A DNA stretch of 64,000 bases from Bordetella petrii (lineage in GTDB: Bacteria > Pseudomonadota > Gammaproteobacteria > Burkholderiales > Burkholderiaceae_B): positions 3,124,673-3,188,672 of the forward strand of contig NZ_JAFMZZ010000001.1 of assembly GCF_017356245.1 (NCBI RefSeq), in the 5' to 3' direction. The notes under the pieces were generated by a model. The model was not told the origin of the DNA. It was given only the letters and a program-made list of their open reading frames with translations, and did no database searches. Below, piece after piece: positions 7,000-28,023 of this stretch. Every line of letters begins with the position of its first letter. The first letter of the stretch is position 1. Both the position numbers and the translations under genes were made by a program.

Positions 7000-7024
7000 G
7001 GCAGATGTCCCGGGCGGTTTATCG

Positions 7025-8050: not shown

Positions 8051-9271
8051 TTGCAGCCGCTGTTATCGAATATCAAGGTGCTGGACCTGAGCCGCGTGCT
8101 GGCGGGGCCCTGGGCCAGCCAGATCCTGGCGGACCTGGGCGCCGACGTCATCAAGGTCGAACGCCCGGGGCGCGGCGACGACACCCGCTCGTGGGGCCCG
8201 CCTTTCCTGAAGGATGAAGCCGGCGCCGACACGGCCGACGGCGCCTATTTCATTGCCACCAATCGCGGCAAGCGCTCCATTACGCTGGACCTGCAGACGC
8301 CCGAAGGCCAGGAACTGGTCAGGACGCTGTGCCGCGACGCCGACGTGGTGCTGGAAAACTACAAGGTAGGCACGCTGGCGCGACTGGGGCTGGACTACGC
8401 GGCGCTGTCCGCCATCAACCCGCGCCTGGTGTACTGCTCGGTAACGGGCTTTGGCCAGACCGGCCCGCGCGCGGCCGAACCCGCCTATGACTTCCTGATC
8501 CAGGCCATGGGCGGCCTGATGAGCGTAACCGGCGAACGCGACGACAAGCCCGGCGGCGGCCCGCAGAAAGTGGGCGTGCCCATCGTCGACCTCAGCACCG
8601 GCGTCTATGCGGCGCTGGGCATCGTGGCCGCGCTCCTGCGCCGCACGCAGACCGGCCGGGGCGAATACGTCGACGTCGCCATGCTGGACGTGCAGGTGGG
8701 CCTGCTGGCCAACCAGGCGATGAATTTCCTGCTGGGCAACCGCGTGCCGCGCCGCACCGGCACCGCGCACCCCAACATCCAGCCGCAGCGCACCTTCAGC
8801 TGCGCCGACGGCGACATCGTGATCGTGGTGGGCAACGATGCGCAGTTCGCCACCCTGTGCGATGTGATCGGCCAGCCGGCGCTGGCGCGCGACGCGCGCT
8901 ACGCCACCAATGGCCAGCGCGTGAAGAACCAGGCCAGCCTGGATCCGGTGCTGGACGCCGCTCTGGCCAGCCGGCCGCGCGCGCACTGGCTGAGCAGGCT
9001 CAAGCAGGCGGGCGTGCCGGCCGGCTCGATCAACACCGTGCCCGAAGTGTTCGACGACCCGCAGGTCGTGCACCGCGACATGCTGCGCCGGCTGCCGCAT
9101 CCGGTGGCGGGCTCGGTGCCGCAGGTCATGAGCCCCCTGCGCTTCGGCGGCGCCAGCCTGCGCGTGGACCGCGCGCCGCCGCTGCTGGGCGAGCACACCG
9201 AGCAAGTGCTGGGCGAACTCGGCCTGAGCGCCGGGCAGATCCAGAGCCTGCGCGACCGCGACATCATCTGA
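8051..9271 (+). CDS. CoA-transferase family III (CaiB/BaiF), first copy
   Basis: Transfers CoA between carboxylic acids. 406 residues from a TTG start chosen because AAGGAG at 8039-8044 sits 6 bases upstream and the product then begins like its paralog at 10119. Family marks: IKVLDLSRVLAGPWASQILADLGADVIKVERPGRGDD, YCSVTGFGQTGP, and the catalytic Asp at about 180 in VGVPIVDLSTGVYAALG. It opens an operon with an enoyl-CoA hydratase, a second CoA-transferase, a double acyl-CoA dehydrogenase and a Bug protein, so it probably activates or cycles the imported acid. A longer ORF from TTG 7994 is less likely. Confidence 0.9.
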   Translation: MQPLLSNIKVLDLSRVLAGPWASQILADLGADVIKVERPGRGDDTRSWGPPFLKDEAGADTADGAYFIATNRGKRSITLDLQTPEGQELVRTLCRDADVVLENYKVGTLARLGLDYAALSAINPRLVYCSVTGFGQTGPRAAEPAYDFLIQAMGGLMSVTGERDDKPGGGPQKVGVPIVDLSTGVYAALGIVAALLRRTQTGRGEYVDVAMLDVQVGLLANQAMNFLLGNRVPRRTGTAHPNIQPQRTFSCADGDIVIVVGNDAQFATLCDVIGQPALARDARYATNGQRVKNQASLDPVLDAALASRPRAHWLSRLKQAGVPAGSINTVPEVFDDPQVVHRDMLRRLPHPVAGSVPQVMSPLRFGGASLRVDRAPPLLGEHTEQVLGELGLSAGQIQSLRDRDII

Positions 9272-9289
9272 CACTGAACGGGAACCACC

Positions 9290-10087
9290 ATGAACATGCC
9301 TGAAGCCCTGGCCGGCCCCTACACCGCGCTGGACGTCACCCTGGACGGCGGCGTGGCCGTCGTCCTGCTGGCCAATCCGCCGGTGAACGCGCTGTCCACC
9401 GACATGATGAACGAGCTGTCCTGGGTGCTGGACCGCATTTCCGAAACGCCCGAGGTCCGCGCGGTGGTGTTGTCCGGGCAGGGCAAGACCTTCTGCGCCG
9501 GCGCCGACCTGAAGAACCGCGCCGCCACGATCAAGAGCCCCGGCGACCTGCCCCAGCATTCGCGGCGCACCCGCGAATGCTTCCACGCCATCCGCGAATG
9601 CGCCAAGCCGGTGGTGGGCGCCATCAACGGCGCGGCGCTGGGCGCGGGCCTGGCCATGGTGGCCTCGTGCGACATCCTGGTGGCGGCCTCGACCGCCACG
9701 GTGGGCCTGCCCGAAATCAACGTGGGCCTTCTCGGCGGCGGCCGGCACGGCATGCGGCTGTTCAGCCACTCGCGCCTGCGGCGCATGATGCTGACCGGCC
9801 TGCGCATCGACGGCGATGAACTCTACCGGCTGGGCGTCGTCGAGGCCTCGGTGCCGCCCGATGCGCTGATGGCCGAGGCGATGGCGCTGGCGCGCGAGCT
9901 GGCGTCCAAGAGCCCGCTTGCCACGGTGCTGGCCAAGCAGACGCTCAACGCCATCGAAGACATGAGCCTGCGCGACGGCTACCGCTACGAACAGGACATG
10001 ACGGCGGCCATCGCCAAGACCGCCGACGCGCGGGAAGCGCGGCAGGCCTTCCTGGAAAAGCGCGCGCCCGTCTTCCAGGGCCGCTAG
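9290..10087 (+). CDS. Enoyl-CoA hydratase/isomerase family protein
   Basis: 265 residues of the crotonase superfamily. Oxyanion-hole motifs are SGQGKTFCAGADLK at about 62-75 and NGAALGAGLAMVASCDILVA, with LPEINVGLLGGGRHGM where hydratases carry their first glutamate. The usual Pro-Gly-x-Gly-Gly becomes Leu-Gly-Gly-Gly-Arg, so the exact reaction (hydratase, isomerase or hydrolase) is open. It lies 18 bases after the first CoA-transferase and 31 before the second. Confidence 0.9.
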   Translation: MNMPEALAGPYTALDVTLDGGVAVVLLANPPVNALSTDMMNELSWVLDRISETPEVRAVVLSGQGKTFCAGADLKNRAATIKSPGDLPQHSRRTRECFHAIRECAKPVVGAINGAALGAGLAMVASCDILVAASTATVGLPEINVGLLGGGRHGMRLFSHSRLRRMMLTGLRIDGDELYRLGVVEASVPPDALMAEAMALARELASKSPLATVLAKQTLNAIEDMSLRDGYRYEQDMTAAIAKTADAREARQAFLEKRAPVFQGR

Positions 10088-10118
10088 CCGCGCCCGCCCC
10101 GACATCCAAGGAGACATC

Positions 10119-11342
10119 ATGGCAGGAGCGCTCGAAGGCGTGAAAGTGCTGGACTTGAGCCGCGTATTCTCAGGCCCCTGGGCCGCGCAGATGCTGGCCG
10201 ACTTCGGCGCCGAAGTCATCAAGGTAGAACGGCCCGGCCGCGGCGACGACGTGCGCCACCAGGGCTACCCCATGCCGGGCCCCGATGGCGCCCCCAGCGG
10301 CGAAACCTCGTCGTTCGTGGCGATGAACCGCGGCAAGCGGTCGCTGACCATCGACATGTCGCGCCCGCAAGGCCAGGCGCTGATCCGGCGCCTGGCGCAG
10401 AACACGGACATCGTCATCGAGAACTTCAAGGCCGGCGACCTGCGCCGCTACGGACTGGACTACGCCTCGCTGGCGGAACTGAATCCGCGGCTGGTGTATT
10501 GCTCGATCACCGGCTTCGGCCAGGACGGCCCGTACAGCCACCTGCCCGGCTATGACCCGATTTTCCAGTCAATGAGCGGCCTGATGAGCGTGACCGGCGT
10601 GCCCGACGGCGAGCCTGGCGCCGGGCCGGTAAAGGCCGGTTATTCGGTGTCCGACCTGACCGCGGGGTTCTATGCCGTGTGCGCCATTCTTGCCGCCCTG
10701 CGCCATCGCGACCAGGTGTCGGGCCGCGGGCAGCACATCGACCTGGCCCTGCTCGACGCGCAGATCGCCGCCATGTCGCACATCGGCATGAACTACCTGG
10801 CCAGCGGCAAGCTGCCGGCGCGCATGGGCTCGTCGTCGCAGATTACCGCGCCGTTCCGTGCCTTTGCCTGCCAGGACGGGCATCTGATGGTGGCGGTGGG
10901 CAACGACTCGCAGTTCCAGAGTTTCTGCCGCGTGATCGGCCTGCCCGGGCTGGCGCAAGACCCGCGCTTCGACACCAACCCCCGGCGCGCGGCGGCCCAG
11001 GCCGAACTGTCGGCGCTGATCGAACCGGCCCTGCTCACCCGCAAGGTCGCCGACTGGAATACCCGGCTGGAACAGGCCAAGGTGCCCTGCGGCCCCATCT
11101 ACACCCTGGACCAGGTATTTGAAGACCCGCAAGTCCGGCATCGCCAGGTGCTGGGCCACATGCCGCATCCGCGCCTGGGCGACATGCCTTTCGTGCGCAA
11201 TCCCATCCATTTCTCGGCCACTCCCATCCAGGCCGGGTTGCCGCCGCCCCTGCTGGGCGAGCACAGCGCCGCCGTGCTGAAGGCCGAACTGGGCCTGGAC
11301 GAAACGGAAATCGCGCAACTGCGGGCAGAAGGCATCATATGA
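10119..11342 (+). CDS. CoA-transferase family III (CaiB/BaiF), second copy
   Basis: 407 residues, colinear with the first CoA-transferase (VKVLDLSRVFSGPWAAQMLADFGAEVIKVERPGRGDD, YCSITGFGQDGP, catalytic Asp at about 179 in AGYSVSDLTAGFYA). Two diverged paralogs in one operon suggest either a heteromeric enzyme or two activation steps, for example an entry acid and a downstream intermediate. AAGGAGA lies just upstream of the ATG. The stop overlaps the next start by 4 bases (ATGA). Confidence 0.9.
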   Translation: MAGALEGVKVLDLSRVFSGPWAAQMLADFGAEVIKVERPGRGDDVRHQGYPMPGPDGAPSGETSSFVAMNRGKRSLTIDMSRPQGQALIRRLAQNTDIVIENFKAGDLRRYGLDYASLAELNPRLVYCSITGFGQDGPYSHLPGYDPIFQSMSGLMSVTGVPDGEPGAGPVKAGYSVSDLTAGFYAVCAILAALRHRDQVSGRGQHIDLALLDAQIAAMSHIGMNYLASGKLPARMGSSSQITAPFRAFACQDGHLMVAVGNDSQFQSFCRVIGLPGLAQDPRFDTNPRRAAAQAELSALIEPALLTRKVADWNTRLEQAKVPCGPIYTLDQVFEDPQVRHRQVLGHMPHPRLGDMPFVRNPIHFSATPIQAGLPPPLLGEHSAAVLKAELGLDETEIAQLRAEGII

Positions 11343-13681
11343 GCCAGGCCGATACCGCACTGATCGAGGCCGTACGCGACAGCGCGCGCGATTTCCTGCG
11401 GCGCCGCGACCAGAAACAGCGCAAGCGCCTGGGCGCCCCGCCCGACCGCGGCTACTGGCGCGAGATCGCCGAGGTCGGCTGGCTGGGCATGGCCGTGCCC
11501 GAACCGCTGGGCGGCCTGGGCCTGGGCTGGCATGCCATGGCGGCTGTCATGGAAGAAGCCGGGCGCGCGCAGCTGCCCGAGCCCCTGGTGGCATCGGCCG
11601 TGCTGCCGGGCGCCGTGCTGGCGCGGCTGCATGACGAAACCGGCGCCGGCGCGCGCCGGCGCCTGCTGCAGGACCTTTGCGCCGGCGCGCGCATCGTCGG
11701 GCTGGCCTGGCAGGAAACCGACGGCCAGCTGGAAGCCGGCGAAGCCACGGGCGCGTTCGGCGTCAGCGCCGCCTTGCGCGAAAACGCCTATGTGCTCAAC
11801 GGTGAAAAGCGCCACGTCATTCCGGGCGACGGCGTGGACGGCTGGCTGGTGTCCGCCGATGGCGAACAGGGGCCGGCGCTGTTCTACGTAGCCGCCGGCA
11901 CCCCCGGTGTCACCGCCACGGTTTATGCGCGCGCCGACGGCACGCGCGCCTGCCACCTGGCGCTGGAATCGGCCGCGGTACCGCCGGATGCCCTGCTGGC
12001 GCGGCAGGGCGTGCTGGACGCCATCGATGCGGCGCTGGATCTGGGGCGGCTGATGCAGGCCGCCGAGCTGGCCGGGGCCGCGCGCCAGGTCCTGGCCGAT
12101 TCGGTGGCCTACCTGAATACGCGCCAGCAGTTCGGCCGGCCCCTGGCCTCGTTCCAGGCCCTGCAGCATCGCCTGGTGGACGCGGCCATGCAGGTAGAGC
12201 TGGCCGCCAACAGCCTGCTGAACGCGCTTGACGGGCTGGACGAACTCGCGGACGCGGACGGCGCCGCAGCCCGCGCCGCCGCCAGCCGCGTGAAGGCGCG
12301 CGCCGCGCGGGCCGGCCTGGAAGCCGCCCGCCTGGCGGTGCAACTGCACGGCGCCATCGGCTACACAGACGAATGCGACGTCAGCCTGTATCTCCGCCAC
12401 GCGCTGCACCTGGCGGCATGGCTGGGCAACGCCACCGCGCACCGCCAGCGCTTCGGCGCCCTGGCGCCCGCCCCCGCCGCGCCGGACATTGACGACGACC
12501 CGCAGGACACGGCCGCCGCCCAGGCGTTTCCCTGCCGGGCCGACTGGAACGCCATGCCCGAGGCCGAATTCCGCGCCATGCTGCGGCGCTTCTTCCGCGC
12601 GCACTATCCGGCCCATCTGCGCCATGTGCCATGGCGCCTGCACTGGGACGAGATCAAAGACTGGTACTACACCCTGTCGCGCCAGGGCTGGATCGCCCCT
12701 TCCTGGCCGCGTGAGCACGGCGGCATGGCGCTGTCGCCGGCCCGCCTGATCGCCTACATCGAAGAAGCCGAACGCTACGGCGTGGCGCGCGCGCCCGATC
12801 AGGGGCTGGTGATGCTCGGCCCCATCCTGCTGCGCTACGGCACCCAGGCGCAGCGCGACCGCTTCCTGCCCGGCATCCTGTCCGGCCAGGACGTGTGGGC
12901 GCAGGGCTACTCGGAACCCGGCGCCGGCTCGGACCTCGCCGCGCTGCGCTGCGAGGCGCTCATCGACGGCGACGACCTGATCGTCACCGGGCAGAAAACC
13001 TGGTCCACGCTGGCGCAGGACGCCACCCACATGTTCATGCTGGTGCGCACCGACAAAACGGTGAAGAAGCAGGCCGGCATCAGCTTCCTGCTGGTCGACC
13101 TGCGCAGCCCGGGCATCAGCCGCCGCCCGATCCGCACGCTGGCCGGCCATGAAGAATTCTGCGAAGTGTTCTTCGACCAGGTGCGCGTGCCGCGCGCCAA
13201 CCTGGTGGGCGAGCTCAATGCCGGCTGGGGCATCGCCAAGGCGCTGCTGGGTTTCGAGCGGCTGTTCAGCGGCAGCCCCAAGCATGCCAACCACGCCCTG
13301 CAGCAGATTTTCAGCGTGGCCCGCCAGCGCGGGCTGCTGGCCGATCCGGCCTTCGCCGACCGGCTGGCCGAGCTGCGGCTGGACGCCGCCGACCTGACCG
13401 CCATGTACGAGGTGTTCGCCGACATGGCGCGCGCCGGCCGGCCCCTGCCGCCCGAACTGTCGCTGCTGAAGATCTGGGCCACCGAAACGCACGAGCGGCT
13501 GGGCGCGCTGCTGATCCAGGCAAGCGAGGAATACGGCGGCGCGGCCATGGCGCAAAGCCATGGCCGGGTGTACGCGCTGGCCCCGTACATCAACGCAATG
13601 GCCGCCACGATTTTCAGCGGCACCAACGAGATACAACGCAACATCTACGCCAAGCAGGTGCTGGGCCTGCAAGGCGCATGA
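11339..13681 (+). CDS. Fused double acyl-CoA dehydrogenase
   Basis: 780 residues, twice the normal length of about 380. Residues 1 to about 375 form one acyl-CoA dehydrogenase unit (VGWLGMAVPEPLGGLGLGW, NTRQQFGRPLASFQALQHRLVD, QLHGAIGYTDECDVSLYLR). Residues about 395-780 form the second (GWIAPSWPREHGGMALSP, GYSEPGAGSDLAALR, TGQKTWSTLAQDA, FSGTNEIQRNIYAKQVLG). The first unit lacks a clear TEP-AGSD FAD segment and its active site looks weaker, so the fusion may mimic alpha2beta2 dehydrogenases of sterol and side-chain catabolism, in which one subunit supplies only part of the site. It probably catalyses the alpha,beta-desaturation in this operon. Confidence 0.9.
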   Translation: MSQADTALIEAVRDSARDFLRRRDQKQRKRLGAPPDRGYWREIAEVGWLGMAVPEPLGGLGLGWHAMAAVMEEAGRAQLPEPLVASAVLPGAVLARLHDETGAGARRRLLQDLCAGARIVGLAWQETDGQLEAGEATGAFGVSAALRENAYVLNGEKRHVIPGDGVDGWLVSADGEQGPALFYVAAGTPGVTATVYARADGTRACHLALESAAVPPDALLARQGVLDAIDAALDLGRLMQAAELAGAARQVLADSVAYLNTRQQFGRPLASFQALQHRLVDAAMQVELAANSLLNALDGLDELADADGAAARAAASRVKARAARAGLEAARLAVQLHGAIGYTDECDVSLYLRHALHLAAWLGNATAHRQRFGALAPAPAAPDIDDDPQDTAAAQAFPCRADWNAMPEAEFRAMLRRFFRAHYPAHLRHVPWRLHWDEIKDWYYTLSRQGWIAPSWPREHGGMALSPARLIAYIEEAERYGVARAPDQGLVMLGPILLRYGTQAQRDRFLPGILSGQDVWAQGYSEPGAGSDLAALRCEALIDGDDLIVTGQKTWSTLAQDATHMFMLVRTDKTVKKQAGISFLLVDLRSPGISRRPIRTLAGHEEFCEVFFDQVRVPRANLVGELNAGWGIAKALLGFERLFSGSPKHANHALQQIFSVARQRGLLADPAFADRLAELRLDAADLTAMYEVFADMARAGRPLPPELSLLKIWATETHERLGALLIQASEEYGGAAMAQSHGRVYALAPYINAMAATIFSGTNEIQRNIYAKQVLGLQGA

Positions 13682-13718
13682 CCCACGCGCGGCCATCCCG
13701 CCACAAGGAGACATCCCC

Positions 13719-14690
13719 ATGAAGAAAAAACACGCTTTCCTGGCAGCCGCCCTGGCCTTGGGCGCGGCGCTGGCGCCGGGCGCGCAGGCCGCGCAAGCCT
13801 GGCCTGACCAGCCTATCCGCCTGATCGTGCCCTATCCTCCCGGCGGCTCGGTCGACAATCTGGCGCGGCTGCTCGCCCCAACACTGGGGCAGAAACTGGG
13901 GCAGACCATCGTGGTCGAGAACCGCGCCGGCGCATCCGGCACCATCGGCGTGGACGCCACCGTGCGCGGCACGCCCGACGGCAGTGTGTTCGGCTTCGGC
14001 GTGCCGGGCGCGATCTCGGGCCTGCCGCACGTCATGAAGGTGCCGTACGACGTGTCGCGAATTCAGTACGTCTCGCTGGTGGCGCGCATTCCCATGGTGT
14101 TCGTGGTGAATCCTTCCATGCCCGAGACCACCCTGCCCGCCTTCATTGCCACAGCGAAGCAGCACCCAGGCAAGTACAACTACGGGTCGGCGGGCAATGT
14201 CACCACGCCGCACCTGGGCGCCGAACTGCTCAGGCAGGAAACCGGCATCGACATCATGCATGTGCCTTACAAGGGCGCCGCGCCGGCGGTTACCGCGCTG
14301 CTGGCCAACGAAGTGCAGCTGTTCCTGGGCGATGCGTCGGCCGTGCTCAGCTTCATCAAGGCCGGCAAGCTGCGCGCCCTGGCCGTGGGCAGCCCCGAGC
14401 GCTTCGAGGGCCTGCCCGATGTGCCCACCACCAAGGAACTGGGGCTGCCCGGCGTGGCGGTCGAATCGAACTACGGCGTGATCGCGCCCACCGGCACGCC
14501 GCCCGACATCGTCAACCGCATGGCCGAGGCCATTGCACAGTCGTTGAAAGACCCGGAACTGCGCCGCAAGATGATCGACCAGGGCGCGGTTCCGCAGGCC
14601 ACCACGCCGGACGAATACCGCAAGCTGATGCAGGCCGAATCGCGCAAATGGGGCGAGGTCATCCGACGCGGCAAGCTGGGGCTGCAGTAG
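13719..14690 (+). CDS. Bug/TctC-family periplasmic binding protein (acyl-CoA cassette)
   Basis: 323 residues: signal peptide MKKKHAFLAAALALGAALAPGAQA, then PDQPIRLIVPYPPGGSVDNLARLLAP, VVENRAGASGTIGVDATV, a TPDG loop and a NYGSAGNVTTPHLGAELL segment, the recurrent Bug-family pattern. Proteins of this family bind carboxylates, amides or amino acids for tripartite (TctABC) uptake. No tctA or tctB is nearby. As the last gene of the CoA-transferase/dehydrogenase operon, 37 bases after the dehydrogenase, it probably binds the acid degraded by that operon. A strong terminator follows at 14701. Confidence 0.93.
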   Translation: MKKKHAFLAAALALGAALAPGAQAAQAWPDQPIRLIVPYPPGGSVDNLARLLAPTLGQKLGQTIVVENRAGASGTIGVDATVRGTPDGSVFGFGVPGAISGLPHVMKVPYDVSRIQYVSLVARIPMVFVVNPSMPETTLPAFIATAKQHPGKYNYGSAGNVTTPHLGAELLRQETGIDIMHVPYKGAAPAVTALLANEVQLFLGDASAVLSFIKAGKLRALAVGSPERFEGLPDVPTTKELGLPGVAVESNYGVIAPTGTPPDIVNRMAEAIAQSLKDPELRRKMIDQGAVPQATTPDEYRKLMQAESRKWGEVIRRGKLGLQ

Positions 14691-19649: not shown

Positions 19650-20627
19650 TCAGTCTGCGTCCGCGCCGGACTGGCGGATCACCTGCGCCCACTTCTTCGT
19701 ATCCTGGCGGATGCGTTCGGCAAAGGCTTCCGGGGTGCTGTGGGTGGTGCGGATGCCGTAGCCGGCCATGCGCTGCACCATTTCGGGCGCGGTCATGACG
19801 GCTTCGATGTCCCGGTTCAGGCGGTCGATGATCGGCCGCGGCGTGCCCGCCGGCGCCAGCACGCCCGACCACAGGCTGACCTCGTAGCCGGAAAAGCCCG
19901 GCGCCTCGGAAATGGACGGCACGTCGGGCAGCACCGGCAGCCGCTGGCGGCTGGTCACGCCCAGCGCCTTGATCTTGCCCTGCTTGACCGATGCGATGAA
20001 ATTCGACGACGTATCGATCATCATCGAAATGCGCCCGGCCAGGAAATCGTTGATGGCGCCGGAACTGCCCTTGTATGGAATGTGGCGGATGTCCACGCCG
20101 GCGATGGACTTGAACATCTCGCCGGCCAGGTGGCTGGTGGTGCCCCGGCCGGAAGAGCTGAAGGTCAGTTCGCCGGGCCGCTGCCGCGCCAGCTCGGCCA
20201 GTTCGGCCACCGAATTCACCGGCATGTCATTGTTGACCACCAGCAGGTTCGAAGTCAGGTTGGTCAGCGAAATGGGCGCGAAACTCTGCTGCGGGTCGTA
20301 GCGCAGCGACGCATACAGCGTCGGGTTGATGGTCAGCACGCCCATGGTCGAATACAGCAGCGTGTAGCCGTCGGGCGTCGCATTGGCCACGGCCTCGGCG
20401 CCGATCGCACCGCCCGCGCCGCCGCGGTTTTCCACCACCACCGATTGCCCCAGCCGCCCGCCCAGGTCCTGCGCCAGCGCGCGGGCCATCAGGTCGGTGG
20501 CCCCGCCTGCCGGAAAGGGAACGACCAGCCGAACAGGATGGTCGGGGTACTCGCCCGCCCGGGCGCCACCCGCCGGGCAGATTCCCAGACACAGGCCGGC
20601 CACAGCCAGCGCGCGCGCCATTTTCAT
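19650..20627 (-). CDS. Bug/TctC-family periplasmic binding protein
   Basis: 325 residues starting MKMARALAVAGLCLGICPAGG, with a signal peptide ending near ARAGEYPDHPVRLVVPFPAGGATDLMARALAQDLG. It has VVENRGGAGGAIGAEAVANATPDGYTLLYS, and HIPYKGSSGAINDFLAGRISMMI in the ligand loop. GGAGAC lies just upstream; a second in-frame ATG two codons in is better spaced from it. As the most upstream minus-strand gene it probably heads the cassette that runs down to 15749. The 230-base gap to hutC carries both promoters. Confidence 0.93.
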   Translation of the reverse strand: MKMARALAVAGLCLGICPAGGARAGEYPDHPVRLVVPFPAGGATDLMARALAQDLGGRLGQSVVVENRGGAGGAIGAEAVANATPDGYTLLYSTMGVLTINPTLYASLRYDPQQSFAPISLTNLTSNLLVVNNDMPVNSVAELAELARQRPGELTFSSSGRGTTSHLAGEMFKSIAGVDIRHIPYKGSSGAINDFLAGRISMMIDTSSNFIASVKQGKIKALGVTSRQRLPVLPDVPSISEAPGFSGYEVSLWSGVLAPAGTPRPIIDRLNRDIEAVMTAPEMVQRMAGYGIRTTHSTPEAFAERIRQDTKKWAQVIRQSGADAD

Positions 20628-20798
20628 GCCGTCTCCATGCTTTTGCTTGTTTTGGTGGAAAGCATGGTATGTGGCCTGCCCGGCCCGGGCTATGCCGGGG
20701 ATGGCAAAGCAGCTATGCAACTGCCCCGCGGCGTCCACTTGGCCGACGACGCGCCATCTGCGGGCTCATTTCCGCATAAGCGCAGCGAAAAAGTTTGC

Positions 20799-20827
20799 TT
20801 GACTATACTTGTATATCCAAGTTAAAT
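20799..20827 (+). promoter_or_regulatory. Sigma-70 promoter of hutC-hutU
   Basis: -35 TTGACT (20799-20804), 17-bp spacer, -10 TTAAAT (20822-20827). Transcription would start near 20834, giving a leader of about 26 bases before the hutC ATG. The HutC-like operator fills the spacer. Confidence 0.65.
20808..20821. promoter_or_regulatory. HutC-like operator
   Basis: CTTGTATATCCAAG, a near-palindrome with CTTG and CAAG arms, close to the CTTGTATGTACAAG type known for HutC repressors. It lies between the -35 and -10 of the hutC promoter, where bound repressor would block RNA polymerase. Confidence 0.65.
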
Positions 20828-20859: not shown

Positions 20860-21639
20860 ATGAATGCCGCGACAAACGACCAGACCCTGGCTCCTTATGC
20901 CCGCATCAAGCAGCACATCATCGCGAACATCGAATCGGGCCTGTGGGCGGTCAATGCGCAGGTGCCCTCCGAGAACCAGCTGGCCGCCCAGTTCGATGTG
21001 TCGCGCATGACGGCGCGCCGCGCCATTCTTGAACTGACGCAAGACGGCATGCTGGTGCGCAGCCAGGGCGTGGGCACTTTCGTGGCCGAACGCCGGCCCA
21101 TGCTGCCGGTGCTGGAAGTGCGCAACATCGCCGACGAAATCGCCGAGCGGGGCCACCACTACGGCAACCGCATCATCCTGCTCGAGCGCGAAACCGCCAC
21201 CGAAGGCATTGCCATTGCGCTGGGCATCGCGCCGGGCAGCCCGGTCTTTCATTCGATTCTGCTGCACCTGGACAACGGCGTCGCGGTGCAGCTCGAAGAC
21301 CGCTATGTCAATCCGCATACCGCGCCCGGCTATATCGAGCAGGACTTCAGCCGCCAGACCCCCAACGCCTATCTCAGCCGCATCGCCCCCCTGTCCGCGG
21401 TGGAACACACTATCGAAGCCATTCTGCCAAGCGCCCAGGTCAGCGCCTGGCTGGGCCTGGACAGCCCGCAAGCCTGCCTGCAGGTATTGCGGCGCACCTG
21501 GACGGCGCCCCACATCGCCACCTTCGCCCGTCTGATCCATCCGGGCGATTCCTATCGCCTGAGCGGCTACGCCACGGTGCCTGCCCAGCCCGCCCCGGCG
21601 TTTCCCAACCCCCAAGAATTTCACGGAACCAAGTCATGA
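20860..21639 (+). CDS. hutC: HutC-type GntR/UTRA regulator (histidine-utilisation repressor)
   Basis: 259 residues. The N-terminal GntR winged HTH is [65 protein letters not shown], at about 12-77. The UTRA effector domain follows, with [38 protein letters not shown] and [20 protein letters not shown], all characteristic of HutC, whose inducer is urocanate. It overlaps hutU by 4 bases and should repress its own operon through the operator at 20808. The ORF extends upstream to 20809, but that lies inside the promoter. Confidence 0.93.
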
Positions 21640-23318
21640 GCGACCACACACCCGACCGCCACGACGCGACGCGCAGCATACGCGCTCCGCGCGGCAATAC
21701 CTTGAGCTGCAAGAACTGGCTGATCGAGGCCGCCTACCGCATGATCCAGAACAACCTGGACCCTGAAGTGGCCGAGCATCCCCACGAACTGGTGGTGTAC
21801 GGCGGCATCGGCCGCGCCGCGCGCAACTGGCCTGCCTACGACAAGATCCTGCAGGTGCTGCGCCGGCTCGAACCCGACGAAACCCTGCTGATCCAGTCCG
21901 GCAAGCCGGTGGGCGTGTTCAAAACGCACGCCGACGCCCCCCGCGTGCTGCTGGCCAACTCGAACCTGGTGCCGCACTGGGCCACCTGGGAACACTTCCA
22001 CGAGCTCGACCGCAAGGGCCTCATGATGTATGGCCAGATGACGGCCGGCAGCTGGATCTACATCGGTTCGCAAGGCATCGTGCAAGGTACGTACGAAACT
22101 TTCTATGCCGTGGCCAACCAGCATTTCGGGGGCGATCCCAAGGGGCGCTGGATCCTCACCGCGGGGCTGGGCGGCATGGGCGGCGCGCAGCCGCTTGCCG
22201 CCACCATGGCCGGCTTCAGCATGATCGCCGTGGAATGCGACGAGTCGCGCATCGATTTCCGGCTGCGCACGCGCTATATCGACGTCAAGGCCACCTCGCT
22301 GGACGAGGCGCTGGCCATCATTGACAAGGCGCGCGCCGAACAGCGCGCCGTATCGGTGGGCCTGCTGGGCAACGCCGCCGACGTGGTGCCCGAGATGGTC
22401 CGCCGCGGCATTACGCCCGACTGCGTTACCGACCAGACCTCGGCGCACGATCCCTTGAACGGCTATCTGCCGCAAGGTTGGACCGTGCAAGCCTGGCGCG
22501 ACAAGCGCCAAAGCGATCCCGCGGCCGTGGTGGCCGCGGCCAAGCAATCCATGGCCGCCCATGTGCGCGCCATGCTCGAACTGAAGCAGCGCGGCGCGGC
22601 CACGCTGGACTACGGCAACAACATCCGGCAGGTTGCGCTGGAAGAAGGCGTTGCCAACGCCTTCGATTTCCCCGGTTTCGTGCCGGCCTATATACGGCCG
22701 TTGTTCTGCGAAGGCATCGGCCCGTTCCGCTGGGCGGCGCTGTCGGGCGATCCGCAAGACATCTACAAGACCGATGCCAAGGTCAAGGAACTGATACCCG
22801 GCGACAAGCACTTGCACAACTGGCTCGACATGGCGCGCGAACGCATCGCCTTCCAGGGGCTGCCGGCGCGCATCTGCTGGGTGGGCGTGCGCGACCGCGC
22901 GCGGCTGGCGCTGGCCTTCAACGAAATGGTGCGCACCGGCGAACTGAGCGCGCCCATCGTCATCGGCCGCGACCATCTCGATTCGGGCTCGGTGGCCAGC
23001 CCCAACCGCGAAACCGAGTCCATGCGCGACGGCTCGGACGCGGTGTCCGACTGGCCGCTGCTGAACGCGCTGCTCAACACTGCCGGCGGCGCGACCTGGG
23101 TATCGCTGCATCACGGCGGCGGCGTGGGCATGGGCTTCTCGCAGCACGCCGGGGTCGTCATCGTCTGCGATGGCAGCCCCGAAGCCGACCGTCGCCTGGC
23201 GCGCGTGCTGCACAACGATCCGGCCAGCGGCGTGATGCGGCACGCCGATGCCGGCTATGACATCGCCATCGACTGCGCCCGGGCCGTCGGGCTGGACCTG
23301 CCCATGCTCGACCGGTAG
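21636..23318 (+). CDS. hutU: Urocanate hydratase
   Basis: Hydrates urocanate to imidazolone propionate with tightly bound NAD, the second step of histidine degradation. 560 residues, full length. Conserved blocks: [18 protein letters not shown] at about 55, [15 protein letters not shown], the NAD-binding [19 protein letters not shown] at about 180-200, [14 protein letters not shown], and [31 protein letters not shown] with the active-site Cys. The C-terminus has [19 protein letters not shown]. It is coupled to hutC by ATGA. Imidazolonepropionase (hutI), hutG and hutF are absent from the window. Confidence 0.96.
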
Positions 23319-23363: not shown

Positions 23364-25148
23364 ATGCGCCACCCCCTATGGTCCACGGACCGCGCTTTAC
23401 CGGCTCTGCCCCTGCCATGGCGGCGCCAGGCCGGCGCGGCCGGCATCGCACTGGCCTGCATGGCCGGCGTCCTGCTGGCCCCCCTTGCCCATGCGGACGG
23501 GGCCGCCCGCGCGGCGGTCCAGCCGGCCGCCGCCGACCGCGCGCCGGTCCGGCAGCAAGCCCTGGCGCTGGACGGCAAGTCGCTCACGGCGGCGCAGGTG
23601 GTCGAGGTCGCGCGCCACGGCCGGCCGGTGGCGCCCACCGATGCGGCCTGGCGGCAAGTGGACCGCTCGCACGAATTGCTGCTGGCGTACGCACGCCTGG
23701 GCCGCCCGGTCTACGGATTGAACCGCGGTGTCGGGCAGAACAAAGACCAGACAATTTTCTCTGGCGATGCCATCTCGGACGAGGCGCGCGCGCTGTCCGA
23801 GGCATTCAATCATCGCATGCTGCTGTCCCATACCGTTGCCTTTGGCGAACCGGCTCCCGCCGACGTGGTGCGCGCCGCGATGGTGGTGCGCCTGAACACG
23901 GCGTTATTCGGCGGCACCGGAATGAGCCCTGCCCTGGTTCGCCAGTACGCGGCGTTCCTGAACAAGGGATTGACGCCTGTGGTGCTGGGCCAGGGCTCGG
24001 TTGGCGAGGCCGACATCGGCATCCTGCCGCAGATCGGCCTGGCCATGATGGGCGAGGGCCAGATCGAAGTCGACGGCCGGCGCATGCCGGCGGCCGACGC
24101 CATGCGCGATGCCGGCATCGAACCGGTCAAGCCATATGCCAAGGACTCATTATCCCTGCTCAGTTCCAACGCTTATGGCGCGGCGCTGGCCATCCTGGCC
24201 GCGCACGACGCCGAAACGCTGCTGGACCGCGCCGACGGGATCGCCGCCCTTGCGCTCGAGGGCTTGAACGGCAATATTGCCCCGCTGCTGCCGGCCGTGC
24301 AGGCGCACCGTCCCTATATAGGCCAACAGCAAACCGCCCGCCGCATTCTCGGCATGCTGGAAGGCAGCGCGCTGTGGCAGGCCGATGACAAGCGGCCGCT
24401 GCAGGACCCTCTCAGTTTCCGCACGGTCAGCCAGGTGCATGGTGCGGCGCGCGATGCGCTGCGGGTGCTGAACGCGCAACTGCTCATCCAGATCAACAGC
24501 TCGGACGACAACCCCACAGTGGTGCTGGATGCCACGCCTCCGGCCGGCGTTACCCCGCAAGAAACCCGCTACTTCGTCACCCAGGGCGATGTGCGCGGCG
24601 CCATCGTGCCCAGCGCCGGTTTCGACCCCACTGCGTGGGTCGTGCCGCTGGAATCCGTGGGGGTGGCGTTGTCACATGTCGCGCAGTCGTCGGCGCAGCG
24701 CGTGCTGCGCCTGGGCGACCCCACCTTCACGCAGCTGTCGCGCTTCCTGTCGCCCGATGGCAAGACCCTGGCCTACACCACCATCCAGAAACCCGTATCC
24801 GCGCTGGCCACCGAAATCCGCGCCCTGTCGCACCCGGTGTCGTCGGATGCGCTGGTCGTGGCCGGCCACATCGAAGATGTGGCCACCAACGCGCCACTGG
24901 TGGCGCAGCGCGTCCGGCAGCAAGTGCTGCGGCTGCGGACGCTGCTGGGCATCGAATTGATCCACGCGGCGCAAGCCGTGGACCTGCGCACCCGCGCCGA
25001 TCCGCAACGCCCCATCGGCAAGGGCACCGGCGCCCTGCTCGGCGCCTTTCGCGAACAGGTAGCGTTTCTGTCGCAAGACCGGCGGCTGGCCGACGACATC
25101 GCGCGCGCCGACCGCTTTCTTCAAAGACCCGGCGACATCGCGCAATAA
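23364..25148 (+). CDS. Exported aromatic amino acid lyase homolog lacking the MIO triad
   Basis: 594 residues of the HAL/PAL superfamily, with a long N-terminus and hydrophobic segment (AAGIALACMAGVLLAPLAHA) and likely cleavage after AHA near residue 44, so the protein is probably periplasmic. The fold is clear: Tyr117 in VYGLNRGVGQNKDQ, LNTALFGGTGMSP, LALEGLNGNIAPLLPAVQAHRPYIGQQ, DPLSFRTVSQVHGAARDAL and NSSDDNPTVVLDA. Where active enzymes have GSVGASGDL, this protein has GSVGEADIGIL at 211-221: the Ala-Ser-Gly that cyclises to the MIO electrophile is Glu-Ala-Asp. It is therefore not a normal histidine ammonia-lyase despite following hutU by 45 bases. It could be a binding protein, a lyase with other chemistry, or a degenerate enzyme. 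Confidence 0.85.
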   Translation: MRHPLWSTDRALPALPLPWRRQAGAAGIALACMAGVLLAPLAHADGAARAAVQPAAADRAPVRQQALALDGKSLTAAQVVEVARHGRPVAPTDAAWRQVDRSHELLLAYARLGRPVYGLNRGVGQNKDQTIFSGDAISDEARALSEAFNHRMLLSHTVAFGEPAPADVVRAAMVVRLNTALFGGTGMSPALVRQYAAFLNKGLTPVVLGQGSVGEADIGILPQIGLAMMGEGQIEVDGRRMPAADAMRDAGIEPVKPYAKDSLSLLSSNAYGAALAILAAHDAETLLDRADGIAALALEGLNGNIAPLLPAVQAHRPYIGQQQTARRILGMLEGSALWQADDKRPLQDPLSFRTVSQVHGAARDALRVLNAQLLIQINSSDDNPTVVLDATPPAGVTPQETRYFVTQGDVRGAIVPSAGFDPTAWVVPLESVGVALSHVAQSSAQRVLRLGDPTFTQLSRFLSPDGKTLAYTTIQKPVSALATEIRALSHPVSSDALVVAGHIEDVATNAPLVAQRVRQQVLRLRTLLGIELIHAAQAVDLRTRADPQRPIGKGTGALLGAFREQVAFLSQDRRLADDIARADRFLQRPGDIAQ

Positions 25149-25190: not shown

Positions 25191-26177
25191 ATGAACACGT
25201 CTCTCGCCATCCGCATGACCGGCGCCCTCCTGGCTGGCGCCTTGCTTACCTCGCCGGCGCTCGCCGCCGAAGACCAGTATCCCAACCGGCCCGTCACCAT
25301 CATCGTGCCGTTCGGCGCGGGCGGCATCGCCGATGCCCTGCCGCGCATCGTCGGGCAGCAACTCAGCACCAAGTGGGGCGTGCCCGTCGTCGTCGAGAAC
25401 AAGGTGGGCGCTTCCGGCAACATCGGCATGGATTACGTGGCCCGCGCCAAGCCCGACGGCTACACGCTGGCGCTGGCGCCGGCCGGCAACCTGACTGTCA
25501 ATCCGCTGCTCTACACCAACCTGCCCTTCGACACGGCCAAGGACTTCGCCCCCGTGACGATGCTTGCCACCTCGCCCAATGTCCTGGTGGTCAATGACCG
25601 GGTGCCGGCCAAAAGCTTCAAGGAACTGGTGGATTACGCCCGCCAGAACCCCGACAAACTCAACTACTCGTCGCCCGGGCCGGGCAGCGGCGCCCACCTG
25701 GCGGGCGAGCTGCTCAACCAGTCGGCCGGCATCGTGATCCGGCACATCCCGTACAACGCCATGGCCGCCGCGGTCAATGACGTGGTGGCGGGCAACGTGG
25801 ACATGATGTTCGCGGGCATTTCCACGGTATTGCCGCAGATCCAGGCCGGCAAGCTGCGGGCACTGGCGGTGGCCGGCCCCGCACGCCTGCCGCAACTGAA
25901 AAACGTGCCCACCGTCGCGGAAAGCGGCTACCCCGGCTTTGACGTGACCTCGTGGTACGGCATCGTCGCCCCGGCCCAGGTTCCGCCGGCCATTCTCGAC
26001 AAACTGCAGGCCGACATCGCCGAGGCCGTGCAGCAAGCCTCCGTGCGCCAGAAATTCGCCGGGCTGGGCGTGGCCCCCTCCGGCTCGAGCCGCGCGGACT
26101 TCGCCCGCACGATCCAGGACGAGACCCGCAAGTGGGCCGCCATCGTGAAGCAAGCCGGCATCCAGCCCATTCAGTAA
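25191..26177 (+). CDS. Bug/TctC-family periplasmic binding protein in the hut-like operon
   Basis: 328 residues: signal peptide MNTSLAIRMTGALLAGALLTSPALAA, then YPNRPVTIIVPFGAGGIADALPRIVGQQL, VVVENKVGASGNIGMDYVARAKPDGYTLALA, and RHIPYNAMAAAVNDVVAGNVDMM. It lies 42 bases after the lyase homolog and 13 before the ornithine-cyclodeaminase-like gene, so the genes are probably one transcript. Urocanate and related aromatic acrylates are carboxylates, so this protein is a good candidate to bind the operon's substrate (inference). Confidence 0.93.
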   Translation: MNTSLAIRMTGALLAGALLTSPALAAEDQYPNRPVTIIVPFGAGGIADALPRIVGQQLSTKWGVPVVVENKVGASGNIGMDYVARAKPDGYTLALAPAGNLTVNPLLYTNLPFDTAKDFAPVTMLATSPNVLVVNDRVPAKSFKELVDYARQNPDKLNYSSPGPGSGAHLAGELLNQSAGIVIRHIPYNAMAAAVNDVVAGNVDMMFAGISTVLPQIQAGKLRALAVAGPARLPQLKNVPTVAESGYPGFDVTSWYGIVAPAQVPPAILDKLQADIAEAVQQASVRQKFAGLGVAPSGSSRADFARTIQDETRKWAAIVKQAGIQPIQ

Positions 26178-26190: not shown

Positions 26191-27195
26191 ATGCAATCCA
26201 TCGACATCACCTACCTGAACGGGCCGGACGTGCGCGCGCTGGCACTCACCGACGCCGAGATCCTGGCCGCCGTGGAAAGCGCCCTGGACGCCCAGGGGCG
26301 CGGGCAGACCGTCATCGAACCGCGCATGCACCTGGTGCCGGAGTCCTCCGCCAAGGGGCATTTCAATGTGCTGCGCGGCTATGTCGCGCCGTTGCACGTT
26401 GCGGGCGTCAAGGTCGTCAGCGACTTCGTGGACAACTACAAGGTCGACCTGCCGTCGGAAATGGCGCTGCTCAATCTGTTCGATCCCGTCAACGGCAAAC
26501 CCCTGGCCGTGATCGACGCGACCGCCATCACCGACATGCGCACCGGCGCGGTCACCGCCCTGGGCGCCAAGCACCTGGCCCGCAAGAACAGCAAGGTGCT
26601 GGGCCACATCGGCTCGCGCGGCACCTCGTACTGGAACGTGCGGCTGCTGGACAGCCTGTTCGACTTCGATGAAATCCGCGTGCATTCCCGCCGCCCTGAA
26701 AGCCAGCAGGCCTTTGGCGAACGTCTTTCGCGGGACCTGAACAAGACAGTCAAGGTCGTGAATGACTGGGAATCGTGCGTGCGCGGCGCCGACATTGTCG
26801 TCGAAGCCTCGCGCCTGCCCGAACCGACCCCGCTGCTCAAGACCGAATGGATCAAGCCCGGCGCGCTGGTCATGCCCTACGGCACGATGAGCGCTGTGGA
26901 ACTGAGCCTGACCGACATCATGAGCAAGGTCGTGGTCGACGACTGGGGCCAGTGCCGCAAGGGGTTGCCGTACGGATCGCTGCGCGCCCACGTCGACAGC
27001 GACCGCATCACCCAGGAAAACCTGCACGCCGAGATCGGCCAGATCGTGGCCGGCCTGAAGCCCGGCCGCGAGCGCGACGACGAGACCATTCTCTTCTGGC
27101 ATCGCGGCCTGTCCACCACCGATATCGCGCTGGGCCATGCCATGCTCCAGAAGGCCGGCAAGATGGGCCTGGGCCAAACGCTGAAGTTCGCCTAG
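26191..27195 (+). CDS. Ornithine cyclodeaminase / mu-crystallin family protein
   Basis: 334 residues. Family blocks: IEPRMHLVPESSAKGHFNVLRGYVAPLHVAGVKVVSDF, LLNLFDPVNGKPLAVIDATAITDMRTGAVTALGAKHLAR, the Rossmann dinucleotide loop GHIGSRGTSYWNVRLLDSLF and GADIVVEASR. Members include ornithine cyclodeaminase, alanine dehydrogenases and imine or ketimine reductases; the substrate cannot be read from sequence. It follows the Bug gene by 13 bases, with AAGGAGA before the ATG. In this operon it might process an amino or imino product. Confidence 0.9.
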   Translation: MQSIDITYLNGPDVRALALTDAEILAAVESALDAQGRGQTVIEPRMHLVPESSAKGHFNVLRGYVAPLHVAGVKVVSDFVDNYKVDLPSEMALLNLFDPVNGKPLAVIDATAITDMRTGAVTALGAKHLARKNSKVLGHIGSRGTSYWNVRLLDSLFDFDEIRVHSRRPESQQAFGERLSRDLNKTVKVVNDWESCVRGADIVVEASRLPEPTPLLKTEWIKPGALVMPYGTMSAVELSLTDIMSKVVVDDWGQCRKGLPYGSLRAHVDSDRITQENLHAEIGQIVAGLKPGRERDDETILFWHRGLSTTDIALGHAMLQKAGKMGLGQTLKFA

Positions 27196-27204: not shown

Positions 27205-28023
27205 ATGGCGCTGATCGCCTCGACCCGCATGTACGACGTGGCGCCCGCCGCCCGGGCCGCCTGGCACGCGCTGCTGCACGCCGCGCACCAGCGCGCCGGC
27301 CTGCAGGTGCAATTCGTCGAGCACGCGTGGCCCACCCCCATCGGCGAACTCTGGGACCGGCCCGGCTTGTGCGGCGCCTTCATGTGCGGCTGGCCCTATG
27401 CGCTGGCCGTGCGGGCGGGGCGCGACTACACCGCCCTGGCCGGCGTCGTGCCCGACTGGCCCCACTACCAGGGCCAGCCCCGTTATCGCAGCGAATTCCT
27501 GGTTCGCGCCGACAGCCCCTGGCGCACGCTGGCCGACACCGCCGGCAGCCGCTACGGCTGGATGGTGCAAGATTCGCAATCCGGCTGGAACGCGCCGCGC
27601 GCGGCGCTGGCCAAGGTCGTGAGCGGGCACGGCGCATGGTTCAGCGATTCCAGGGGGCCTTACGGCAATCCGCGCGGCCTGCTGCGGGCCCTGGCCGGCG
27701 GCGAAATCGACCTGACCGCCGTGGACGGCTGGTATCTGGACTTGCTGCGCGTCCATGACCGCGACGCGCTGGCCGGGCTGCGCACCCTGGCTTATACGCC
27801 CTGGACGCCCAACCCGTTGCTGGTGGCGGGCCCTGGCGTCGACGCCGCCTGCGCCGCCCGCCTGGCGCAGGCGCTGCTCGGCCTGCAAGACGACCCCGGC
27901 GGCGCGCAACTGCTGCGCAACGCCCGCGTCGCCCGTTTCGTGCGGCCCGAGCCTGGCCGTTACGCGCAACTGATCGGCATGGCGCACGAGGCCGAGGCGT
28001 GCGGCTACCGCGACATCCGCTGA
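27205..28023 (+). CDS. PhnD-like periplasmic-binding domain protein without signal peptide
   Basis: 272 residues resembling the PhnD/phosphonate-binding fold (PF12974 type). The protein begins directly with the first strand, MALIASTRMYDVAPAARAAWHALLHAAHQRAGLQVQFVEH. Then come GAFMCGWPYALAVRAGRDYTALAGVVPD, YRSEFLVRADSPWRTLADTAGSRYGW and AGGEIDLTAVDGWYLDLLRVHD. There is no signal peptide and no space for one, since the previous stop is only 9 bases upstream. It is thus cytoplasmic or exported by another route, and may act as a ligand sensor or enzyme. It is the last gene of the hut-like operon, ending 3 bases from the convergent regulator. Confidence 0.75.
   Translation: MALIASTRMYDVAPAARAAWHALLHAAHQRAGLQVQFVEHAWPTPIGELWDRPGLCGAFMCGWPYALAVRAGRDYTALAGVVPDWPHYQGQPRYRSEFLVRADSPWRTLADTAGSRYGWMVQDSQSGWNAPRAALAKVVSGHGAWFSDSRGPYGNPRGLLRALAGGEIDLTAVDGWYLDLLRVHDRDALAGLRTLAYTPWTPNPLLVAGPGVDAACAARLAQALLGLQDDPGGAQLLRNARVARFVRPEPGRYAQLIGMAHEAEACGYRDIR

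What the first reader, a model, noticed from the sequence alone, without database searches (positions are those of the whole stretch)
23364..25148. Exported ammonia-lyase homolog whose MIO cofactor triad is Glu-Ala-Asp
The protein has the full HAL/PAL fold signatures and the Tyr loop (VYGLNRGVG), but GSVGASGDL is replaced by GSVGEADIGIL (211-221). Without Ala-Ser-Gly no methylidene-imidazolone can form, so normal amino acid deamination is not expected. It also has an N-terminal export signal, whereas HutH is cytoplasmic. It sits behind hutC-hutU and before a Bug carboxylate-binding protein. Possibilities: a periplasmic binding protein for histidine or urocanate, a lyase with different chemistry, or an enzyme in decline. 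An automatic annotation would call it HutH and mislead.
Basis: partly seen in the sequence, partly recalled or inferred. Interest (0 to 1): 0.8.

Follow-up and report, generated by a model that had tools for sequence, protein, structure and literature searches.

The report
Exported MIO-free trimethylamine lyase, not HutH
A bacterial gene that looks like the enzyme for histidine breakdown has lost that enzyme's built-in cofactor and is sent out of the cytoplasm; it most likely clips trimethylamine from a histidine betaine and feeds the rest into the ordinary histidine pathway.

Summary
In detail: an intact 594-aa ORF with GSVGEADIGIL where HutH has GSVGASGDLAPL, plus an export signal. It is not decay: none of the 120 nearest homologs listed shows Ala-Ser-Gly, and selection is purifying (dN/dS 0.16-0.21). 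The closest solved relative is ergothionase, a known MIO-free trimethylamine (TMA) lyase. 'Glu-Ala-Asp triad' is the wrong description: ASG became two residues, the Glu varies, and the Asp is HutH's own.

New is that exported MIO-free lyases couple to different pathways by clade. The sister clade (58-62% identical) sits with thiourocanate (ergothioneine) genes. The window's clade has true urocanase, HutC and HutI nearby in Bordetella; two Bordetella genomes have this lyase, HutU and HutI but no other HutH-fold protein. A HutC-type operator precedes 7 of 8 evaluable operons of this clade, four lacking hutU, and none of 13 thiourocanate-type loci.

Best reading: a periplasmic TMA-lyase on a histidine betaine whose product reaches urocanate. 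Whether imidazole C2 carries H (hercynine) or sulfonate (oxidised ergothioneine) is open; a conserved ornithine-cyclodeaminase-like neighbour and, in other lineages, a putative sulfite/sulfate exporter favour sulfonate. No assay or structure was available.

The parts
20808..20821 (+). HutC-type operator, CTTGTATATCCAAG
   Evidence: 1 mismatch to CTTGTATATACAAG, the only site with at most 3 mismatches in the 64-kb window; 0 of 300 shuffles of the upstream 400 bp do as well. The consensus was set by me from this site and from recall of Pseudomonas HutC sites; similar sites lie 41 and 37 bp before two canonical hutH genes. Binding not tested.
20860..21639 (+). hutC, histidine-utilization repressor (GntR/UTRA)
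   Evidence: TIGR02018 286.2 bits, cut-off 220; start taken as the ATG at 20860
21636..23318 (+). hutU, true urocanase by model; second copy in this genome
   Evidence: hutU 973.9 bits (cut-off 375); thiourocanate hydratase 700.1 (cut-off 930); S-methyl thiourocanate hydratase 716.4 (cut-off 880). The other copy scores 926.6 for hutU and is 71.8% identical.
23364..25148 (+). MIO-free HutH-fold lyase, predicted exported trimethylamine lyase
   Evidence: best solved relative is ergothionase 6s7j, 323.2 bits, against 138.2 for HutH 1gkj
23364..23567 (+). N-terminal extension with hydrophobic export signal (about residues 1-68; possible cleavage after AHA, residues 42-44, by eye)
   Evidence: hydrophobic 12-mer mean 2.6; such an extension in 104 of 119 nearest homologs and 0 of 115 T. 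denticola-type relatives with a readable Tyr loop. A hydropathy rule, not a signal-peptide program.
23994..24026 (+). place of the MIO triad: GSVGEADIGIL
25191..26177 (+). Bug/TctC periplasmic binding protein; candidate carrier of the acrylate product (inference)
   Evidence: PF03401 256.4 bits; a Bug gene lies in all 10 window-clade loci
26191..27195 (+). ornithine cyclodeaminase / mu-crystallin family enzyme (OCD)
   Evidence: PF02423 186.3 bits; PDB relatives are alanine dehydrogenase, pyrroline-2-carboxylate reductase and mu-crystallin; 70-96% identical orthologs in related clusters; dN/dS 0.06
27205..28023 (+). PhnD/SsuA-like protein, no signal peptide by eye
   Evidence: PF12974 89.5 bits; PDB relatives are PtxB-like/Aio proteins and ArrX, which from recall bind oxyanions

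Best explanation
The protein is an exported, MIO-independent lyase of the ergothionase type. In the periplasm it removes trimethylamine from an N,N,N-trimethyl-histidine (a histidine betaine) by acid/base-assisted 1,2-elimination, leaving an imidazolyl-acrylate. Unlike its sister clade, which feeds the thiourocanate (ergothioneine) route, this clade feeds the ordinary hut route: the acrylate is taken up, is or becomes urocanate, and HutU and HutI continue the breakdown under HutC control. The betaine is either hercynine (urocanate forms directly) or ergothioneine sulfonate (the conserved OCD protein would then remove sulfite with NAD(P)H before HutU). I lean slightly to the sulfonate (about 0.40 against 0.35). 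Shown here: absence of the MIO triad, kinship to ergothionase, clade, neighbours, operator-like sites, purifying selection. Inferred: export, TMA as leaving group, periplasmic site, uptake by Bug, HutC control, the OCD step.
For: Nearest solved relative is ergothionase. Y117, K476, E504, R353, L350 and D381 match Y54, K384, E412, R281, L278 and D309 of the T. denticola protein P0122, while the own HutH has V386, Y280 and S311 at the places of K476, L350 and D381. The adjacent hydratase differs by clade: true hutU beside the window's lyase and in L005 and L007; thiourocanate hydratase over cut-off in L013 and L015 (sister clade) and in L021 (branching just outside both clades); S-methyl thiourocanate hydratase over cut-off in L080. 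Of 13 genomes checked, the 6 with thiourocanate hydratase over cut-off are exactly those with a sister-clade lyase (5) or the L021 lyase (1), and 6 of 8 window-clade genomes lack it. G002 and G003 have one HutH-fold protein each, this lyase, one urocanase-family match and one HutI over cut-off. HutC-type sites (at most 2 mismatches) precede 7 of 8 evaluable window-clade operons, 4 of them with no hutU attached; 0 of 13 loci L013-L025 have one. Rhizobial OCD clusters pair a MIO-free lyase with a glycine-betaine ABC transporter, HutC and a putative sulfate exporter.
Against: No activity was measured and no structure model could be made. Coupling can switch among close relatives: the P. denitrificans lyase in L133 is 71.1% identical to the hut-coupled Paracoccus one in L088 but sits with thiourocanate hydratase, so these lyases may be promiscuous. 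OCD also occurs in a canonical hut operon with a MIO-type HutH (L154), in Cupriavidus without a lyase found nearby (L152, L153) and in L156 with no seed gene of either route nearby, so OCD is not tied to the lyase. The Polaromonas window-clade cluster (L085) has neither hutU nor a HutC-type site within 400 bp of lyase or exporter. hutU is adjacent in 4 of 9 window-clade loci where it could be seen (L008 is cut). The hut-coupled L135 has no site closer than 4 mismatches before OCD or lyase. Bordetella and Achromobacter clusters lack the exporter, though one PF03601 gene lies elsewhere in each of the 7 genomes searched, which decides nothing.
Confidence: 0.62

Rival explanations
1. Hercynine lyase: the substrate is plain hercynine, urocanate is made directly in the periplasm, and OCD and PhnD-like serve something else.
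For: True hutU, hutI and hutC context; simplest route to urocanate; glycine-betaine binding protein beside a MIO-free lyase in rhizobia and L157; OCD also found in a canonical hut operon, so it may have a separate role.
Against: Gives no role to the OCD protein, present in 10 of 10 window-clade loci and strongly conserved, nor to the putative sulfite/sulfate exporter in Polaromonas, Paracoccus and Rhizobium clusters.
Confidence: 0.35
2. Ergothioneine-sulfonate route: the lyase makes urocanate-2-sulfonate, OCD reductively removes sulfite, HutU and HutI follow.
For: OCD is kin to ketimine and imine reductases. OCD was found in 0 of 38 loci whose best hydratase hit is of thiourocanate type (34) or S-methyl type (4), and in 6 of 6 proteobacterial MIO-free-lyase loci with a true hutU. 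PF03601 exporters sit in the same clusters; PMC11582611 passages link this family to sulfite or sulfate from sulfonate breakdown. An ergothioneine sulfonate pathway is in print by title (reference list of PMC13405746; paper not held).
Against: The desulfonating role of OCD is my chemical inference. No exporter in the Bordetella or Achromobacter clusters. OCD also occurs without a MIO-free lyase nearby (L152, L153, L154, L156).
Confidence: 0.4
3. An ordinary ergothionase: it makes thiourocanate from ergothioneine, and its place beside hutU is incidental.
For: Sister clade at 58-62% identity is coupled to ergothioneine genes. T. denticola ergothionase is the nearest enzyme with a solved structure. 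Coupling differs within 71% identity in Paracoccus.
Against: Own genome has no thiohydantoin desulfurase match and two urocanases, both of hutU type. 6 of 8 window-clade genomes lack thiourocanate hydratase. Two Achromobacter genomes carry both lyase types.
Confidence: 0.1
4. A histidine ammonia-lyase that works without MIO, replacing HutH in genomes that lack it.
For: G002 and G003 have HutU and HutI but no other HutH-fold protein.
Against: Ammonia is a poor leaving group without MIO (established chemistry of this family); own genome and G001 keep a canonical HutH besides; the protein looks exported.
Confidence: 0.06
5. A catalytically dead protein or periplasmic binding protein.
For: Export-type N-terminus; next to a binding protein gene.
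Against: Residues matching ergothionase conserved, purifying selection, conserved neighbours.
Confidence: 0.05

Closest known systems
Ergothionase (ergothioneine TMA-lyase), Treponema denticola, PDB 6s7j/6s7q
   Same: HutH fold without MIO; SSIGEGDITTL at the same place; matching Tyr, Lys, Glu and Arg
   Different: About 498 aa, no export-type N-terminus; about 40% identical to the window's protein (P0122). Its own gene context was not examined. The Burkholderia, Cupriavidus and Agrobacterium ergothionases named in PMC13405746 were not available for comparison.
Sister clade of exported lyases with thiourocanate hydratase and thiohydantoin desulfurase (Achromobacter, Comamonas)
   Same: Export-type, MIO-free, 58-62% identical
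   Different: LysR gene, MFS transporter and thiourocanate-route genes alongside; no HutC-type site within 2 mismatches; no OCD
Histidine ammonia-lyase HutH
   Same: Fold family, Tyr loop, Glu and Arg of the active site
   Different: No Ala-Ser-Gly, below the hutH cut-off, export-type N-terminus
Rhizobial cluster annotated hutC-hutH with glycine-betaine ABC transporter, OCD, PhnD-like and putative sulfate exporter (pRL12 of R. johnstonii 3841)
   Same: MIO-free lyase (GSIGAADL; 385.0 bits, below the hutH cut-off), true HutC, OCD 75% identical, PhnD-like
   Different: Lyase has no export signal by eye; betaine importer; no hutU detected in the stretch

Membership tests
Histidine ammonia-lyase (HutH, MIO enzyme) | Ala-Ser-Gly that forms MIO | tested here: not met
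   GSVGEAD at 211-217
Histidine ammonia-lyase (HutH, MIO enzyme) | score above the hutH model cut-off | tested here: not met
   304.7 against 539.15 bits
Histidine ammonia-lyase (HutH, MIO enzyme) | releases ammonia from histidine | not testable with these tools
   needs an assay
Ergothionase-type MIO-free lyase | closest solved kin by sequence is ergothionase | tested here: met
   323.2 bits to 6s7j, next 165.9 (7tqr)
Ergothionase-type MIO-free lyase | no MIO triad; one residue shorter, with conserved Asp | tested here: met
Ergothionase-type MIO-free lyase | Lys in place of Val of HutH (K384 in P0122 numbering) and the Tyr and Glu | tested here: met
   K476, Y117, E504; that this Lys is catalytic is recalled, paper not held
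Ergothionase-type MIO-free lyase | eliminates trimethylamine | not testable with these tools
   needs an assay
Ergothioneine-utilization lyase | thiourocanate hydratase and thiohydantoin desulfurase in the genome | tested here: not met
   both urocanase copies are hutU type; no desulfurase match
hut regulon member | in an operon with hutC and hutU behind a HutC-type operator | tested here: met
   by sequence only, HutC binding not tested

The most novel reading that the evidence does not exclude
A periplasmic lyase opens a route in which oxidised ergothioneine (the sulfonate) loses trimethylamine outside the cytoplasm, an ornithine-cyclodeaminase-like enzyme removes its sulfonate reductively, and the resulting urocanate enters the histidine pathway under HutC control.
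Probability: 0.33. Interest if true: 0.75.

Novelty: new variant of a known kind. Interest (0 to 1): 0.56.

Why it matters
A 2026 paper (PMC13405746, passages seen) calls ergothionase restricted to few genera, while allowing that divergent or poorly annotated relatives were not counted. Here 234 of the 240 homologs listed by two searches are readably MIO-free, many named histidine ammonia-lyase, and they include a whole class with export signals; whether each is an ergothionase is not known. The clade-by-clade match between lyase and downstream hydratase gives a direct test of substrate range, and the OCD enzyme is a concrete candidate for an unassigned step. If true, trimethylamine is released in the periplasm, and histidine regulation is linked to histidine betaines.

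Tried and rejected
Sequencing error or pseudogene: rejected (119 of 120 listed homologs carry an equivalent motif with no ASG; dN/dS 0.16-0.21). Glu as a conserved catalytic residue: rejected (E, Q, A). Substrate from specificity-determining positions: 38 near-fixed differences between 10 window-clade rows and 12 thiourocanate-coupled rows (L013-L024), but L021, one of the 12, shares several window-clade states (for example TT before IQK; P0060, identical to L021), so inconclusive. Structure model and pocket: not possible, tool off. Wider sampling: 4 of 399 genomes of the order, the own one included, and 1 of 398 of the phylum, the own one (Paracoccus lyase as query) passed the limits used, so no further hut-coupled clade came from these. 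HutF: no match at E <= 1e-30 in 4 genomes, so the step after HutI was not identified. Papers: 10 searches; no title or abstract opening in their listings names a hercynine lyase or a hut-coupled MIO-free lyase; most subscription journals are not in that library, so this is no proof of absence. Passages of four papers were seen. The ergothionase structure paper, a 2025 cross-feeding paper, the ergothioneine sulfonate paper and a HutC paper were not held.

Full report
OBSERVATION. The ORF 23364-25148 (+) is intact and codes for 594 aa. Pfam gives Lyase_aromatic over residues 74-564 at 430.5 bits. At the MIO place it reads GSVGEADIGIL (211-221). Against HutH, the triad ASG is replaced by EA with one residue deleted, and D217 is the Asp conserved in HutH. 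It falls far below the hutH model (304.7 against 539.15 bits).

NOT DECAY. One search found 498 homologs among 8000 scored candidates and listed 120, one of them a database copy of this protein. In these 120 the MIO place reads EA 71, QA 38, AA 4, EG 6, one unreadable, none ASG. Pairwise dN/dS of the gene against four relatives is 0.16-0.21; hutU gives 0.07-0.08 and OCD 0.06 (three relatives each), Bug 0.13-0.15 (two). An export-type N-terminus (hydropathy rule) occurs in 104 of 119 of this set and in 0 of 115 of the T. denticola-type set with a readable Tyr loop.

KINSHIP. The best solved relative is ergothionase of T. denticola (6s7j, 323.2 bits); the next is a probable HutH, 7tqr (165.9), and HutH 1gkj has 138.2. 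Ergothionase has SSIGEGDITTL at the MIO place. Y117, K476 and E504 match Y54, K384 and E412 of the T. denticola protein P0122; the place of K476 is V386 in the own canonical HutH. That this Lys is catalytic is recalled; the paper is not held. PMC13405746 (passages) states that ergothionase lacks MIO and makes TMA and thiourocanic acid, and names Burkholderia, Cupriavidus, A. radiobacter and T. denticola as definite holders; only the T. denticola sequence was available to me.

TREE. In a quick maximum-likelihood tree of 109 rows the group that holds the export-type lyases has 49 rows (SH-aLRT 100). The window's protein lies in a 10-row clade (100) of Bordetella and Achromobacter; its sister is a 15-row clade (100) of Achromobacter, Comamonas and B. 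trematum, the two joined at 99; the Polaromonas OV174 lyase L021 branches just outside both (81). In a second tree of 88 rows the Polaromonas JS666 plasmid lyase (L085) joins the window's clade (94), and lyases of Sinorhizobium, B. arboris and Paracoccus form a further group (99). Many rows have unusual composition and some deep forks are open.

OPERON. hutC (20860-21639), hutU (21636-23318), lyase, Bug, OCD and PhnD-like follow each other on the + strand with gaps of at most 45 bp. HutC and HutU are true family members by model score. The genome (4.95 Mb, 14 contigs) has a second, canonical hut locus with an ASG-type HutH and another HutU, and its one HutI over cut-off lies there.

DOWNSTREAM ENZYME BY CLADE. 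The hydratase next to the lyase is hutU by model for the window (973.9), L005 (974.1) and L007 (971.9), with thiourocanate hydratase scores near 700 against a cut-off of 930. It is thiourocanate hydratase in L013 (1047.1) and L015 (1046.0) of the sister clade, in L021 (1044.9) and in Paenibacillus L047 (1020.8); in L080 it is S-methyl thiourocanate hydratase (972.6, cut-off 880). Since L021, outside both clades, is thiourocanate-coupled, the hut coupling of the window's clade looks like the derived state. L013 also has thiohydantoin desulfurase (593.4, cut-off 440), and Paenibacillus L047 has an ErtE-type amidohydrolase over cut-off and an ErtD-like one below it. HutI (483.6, cut-off 298.15) stands next to hutC in L005, and the one HutI over cut-off in G001 and in G002 lies in this cluster.

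GENOME TESTS. Of 13 genomes, 6 have thiourocanate hydratase over cut-off: G006, G008, G009, G010 and G012 with a sister-clade lyase, and G011 with L021. The other 7 (G001-G005, G007, G013) have none and no such lyase. Of the 8 with a window-clade lyase (G001-G008), 6 lack the hydratase and the other 2 also carry a sister-clade lyase. G002 (Bordetella genomosp. 2) and G003 (B. petrii MY10) have one HutH-fold protein each, the MIO-free lyase, one urocanase-family match and one HutI over cut-off. The same two assemblies appear as G019 (9 contigs, 100% complete) and G016 (550 contigs, 99%), judged by matching coordinates. No HutF at E <= 1e-30 was found in G000-G003.

REGULATION. CTTGTATATCCAAG at 20808 lies 52 bp before hutC. 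With at most 2 mismatches to CTTGTATATACAAG, sites lie before hutC in the window, L005 and L006, and before the lyase in L009-L012 (lyase starts there are my estimates), where no hutU is attached. L007 and L008 are cut on that side. L085 has none within 400 bp of lyase or exporter; its only such site is inside the LysR gene. Among hut-coupled or OCD clusters elsewhere, sites lie between OCD and exporter in Paracoccus L137 (1 mismatch; 3 mismatches before its hutC), before the CoA-transferase operon in L149, L150 and L134 and before the lyase in L157 (2 mismatches each); L135 has none (best 4 and 5). In the 13 loci L013-L025 (12 of the sister clade plus L021) there is none with at most 2 mismatches. 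Sites also lie 41 and 37 bp before two canonical hutH genes. Where a site was found, shuffles of the upstream stretch reached it 0 or 1 time in 300. The consensus was fixed after seeing the window site, so the window's own match is not independent; the Achromobacter, Paracoccus and canonical hutH sites are.

THE OCD ENZYME. OCD is present in 10 of 10 window-clade loci and was not found in any of 38 loci whose best hydratase hit is of thiourocanate type (34) or S-methyl type (4) (classed by best tblastn hit, six of them also by model). It is present in all 6 proteobacterial lyase loci with a true hutU (window, L005, L006, L007, L135, and Paracoccus L088 with its extension L137). Two Firmicutes loci whose best hydratase hit is hutU-like (L031, L064) have no OCD. 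These loci share ancestry, so the independent support is about three lineages. Rhizobial plasmids carry exporter, CoA transferase, SDR, MaoC, hutC, a MIO-free lyase named hutH, glycine-betaine binding protein, OCD, PhnD-like and ABC transporter (partly annotated). L157 has HutI, a HutH-like gene and part of a hutU beside lyase, glycine-betaine binding protein and OCD. OCD also adjoins other MIO-free lyases with no hut seed gene in the stretch (L155, L158). Against a tight link: G228 (L154) has OCD, PhnD-like and Bug in a canonical hut operon with ASG-type HutH, Cupriavidus L152 and L153 have them with no lyase found nearby, and L156 has OCD with none of the seed genes.

MECHANISM. I infer that the lyase uses Y117, K476 and E504 (matching ergothionase) to expel trimethylamine, which needs no MIO because it is a good leaving group. 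The hut context says that the product is, or becomes, urocanate. The betaine is then hercynine or ergothioneine sulfonate. The sulfonate explains OCD as a reductive desulfonase (kin of ketimine and imine reductases) and the exporter family, which PMC11582611 (passages) ties to sulfite or sulfate from sulfonate breakdown. Hercynine is simpler but leaves OCD without a role. I give 0.40 and 0.35.

CAUTIONS. No assay and no structure. The P. denitrificans lyase, 71.1% identical to the hut-coupled Paracoccus one, sits with thiourocanate hydratase, so coupling may switch without a change of substrate. Signal peptides were judged by hydropathy only. Identity of G-handles with named strains was inferred from loci and coordinates.

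NOVELTY. The fold without MIO and the TMA chemistry are known (ergothionase). The exported class, its split into ergothioneine-coupled and hut-coupled clades, and the HutC-type sites did not show in the listings of the papers searched. I rate it a new variant of a known kind.

Noticed in passing
L154 (G228) 5282-14356: A canonical hut operon with an ASG-type HutH carries OCD, PhnD-like and Bug genes between hutU and hutI; their role there is unknown.
   Followed up: partly
loci L031-L081 (Firmicutes, Fusobacterium): T. denticola-type lyases of anaerobes lie with genes of xanthine-dehydrogenase-like type (cluster 5 in 24 loci; representative scored as XdhB-like; clusters 6 and 11 not annotated).
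   Followed up: no
L013-L025: Loci of the sister clade and L021 carry a metallo-beta-lactamase-fold protein with an export-like N-terminus (cluster 16, 12 loci), and most also an MFS transporter; role unknown.
   Followed up: no
L086 (S. meliloti pSymA): A MIO-free-class lyase annotated hutH lies about 2.7 kb from a gene annotated dimethylsulfoniopropionate lyase.
   Followed up: no
L149 4414-7615 and similar rhizobial plasmids: CoA transferase, SDR and MaoC dehydratase genes lie in the operon of the MIO-free lyase; they suggest an acyl-CoA step not seen in Bordetella.
   Followed up: no
L102 (G006) and L103 (G009): Further Lyase_aromatic proteins (533.0 and 517.8 bits) in which my motif search found no frame; not examined.
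   Followed up: no
window 19650-20738 (-): A second Bug-like binding protein gene lies divergently upstream of hutC (family judged by clustering with the Bug gene).
   Followed up: no
Legionella, Parachlamydia, Coleofasciculus and Pendulispora homologs: Export-type MIO-free lyases occur far outside Burkholderiales; none of the hut or ergothioneine seed genes was detected in the Legionella and Parachlamydia loci.
   Followed up: partly
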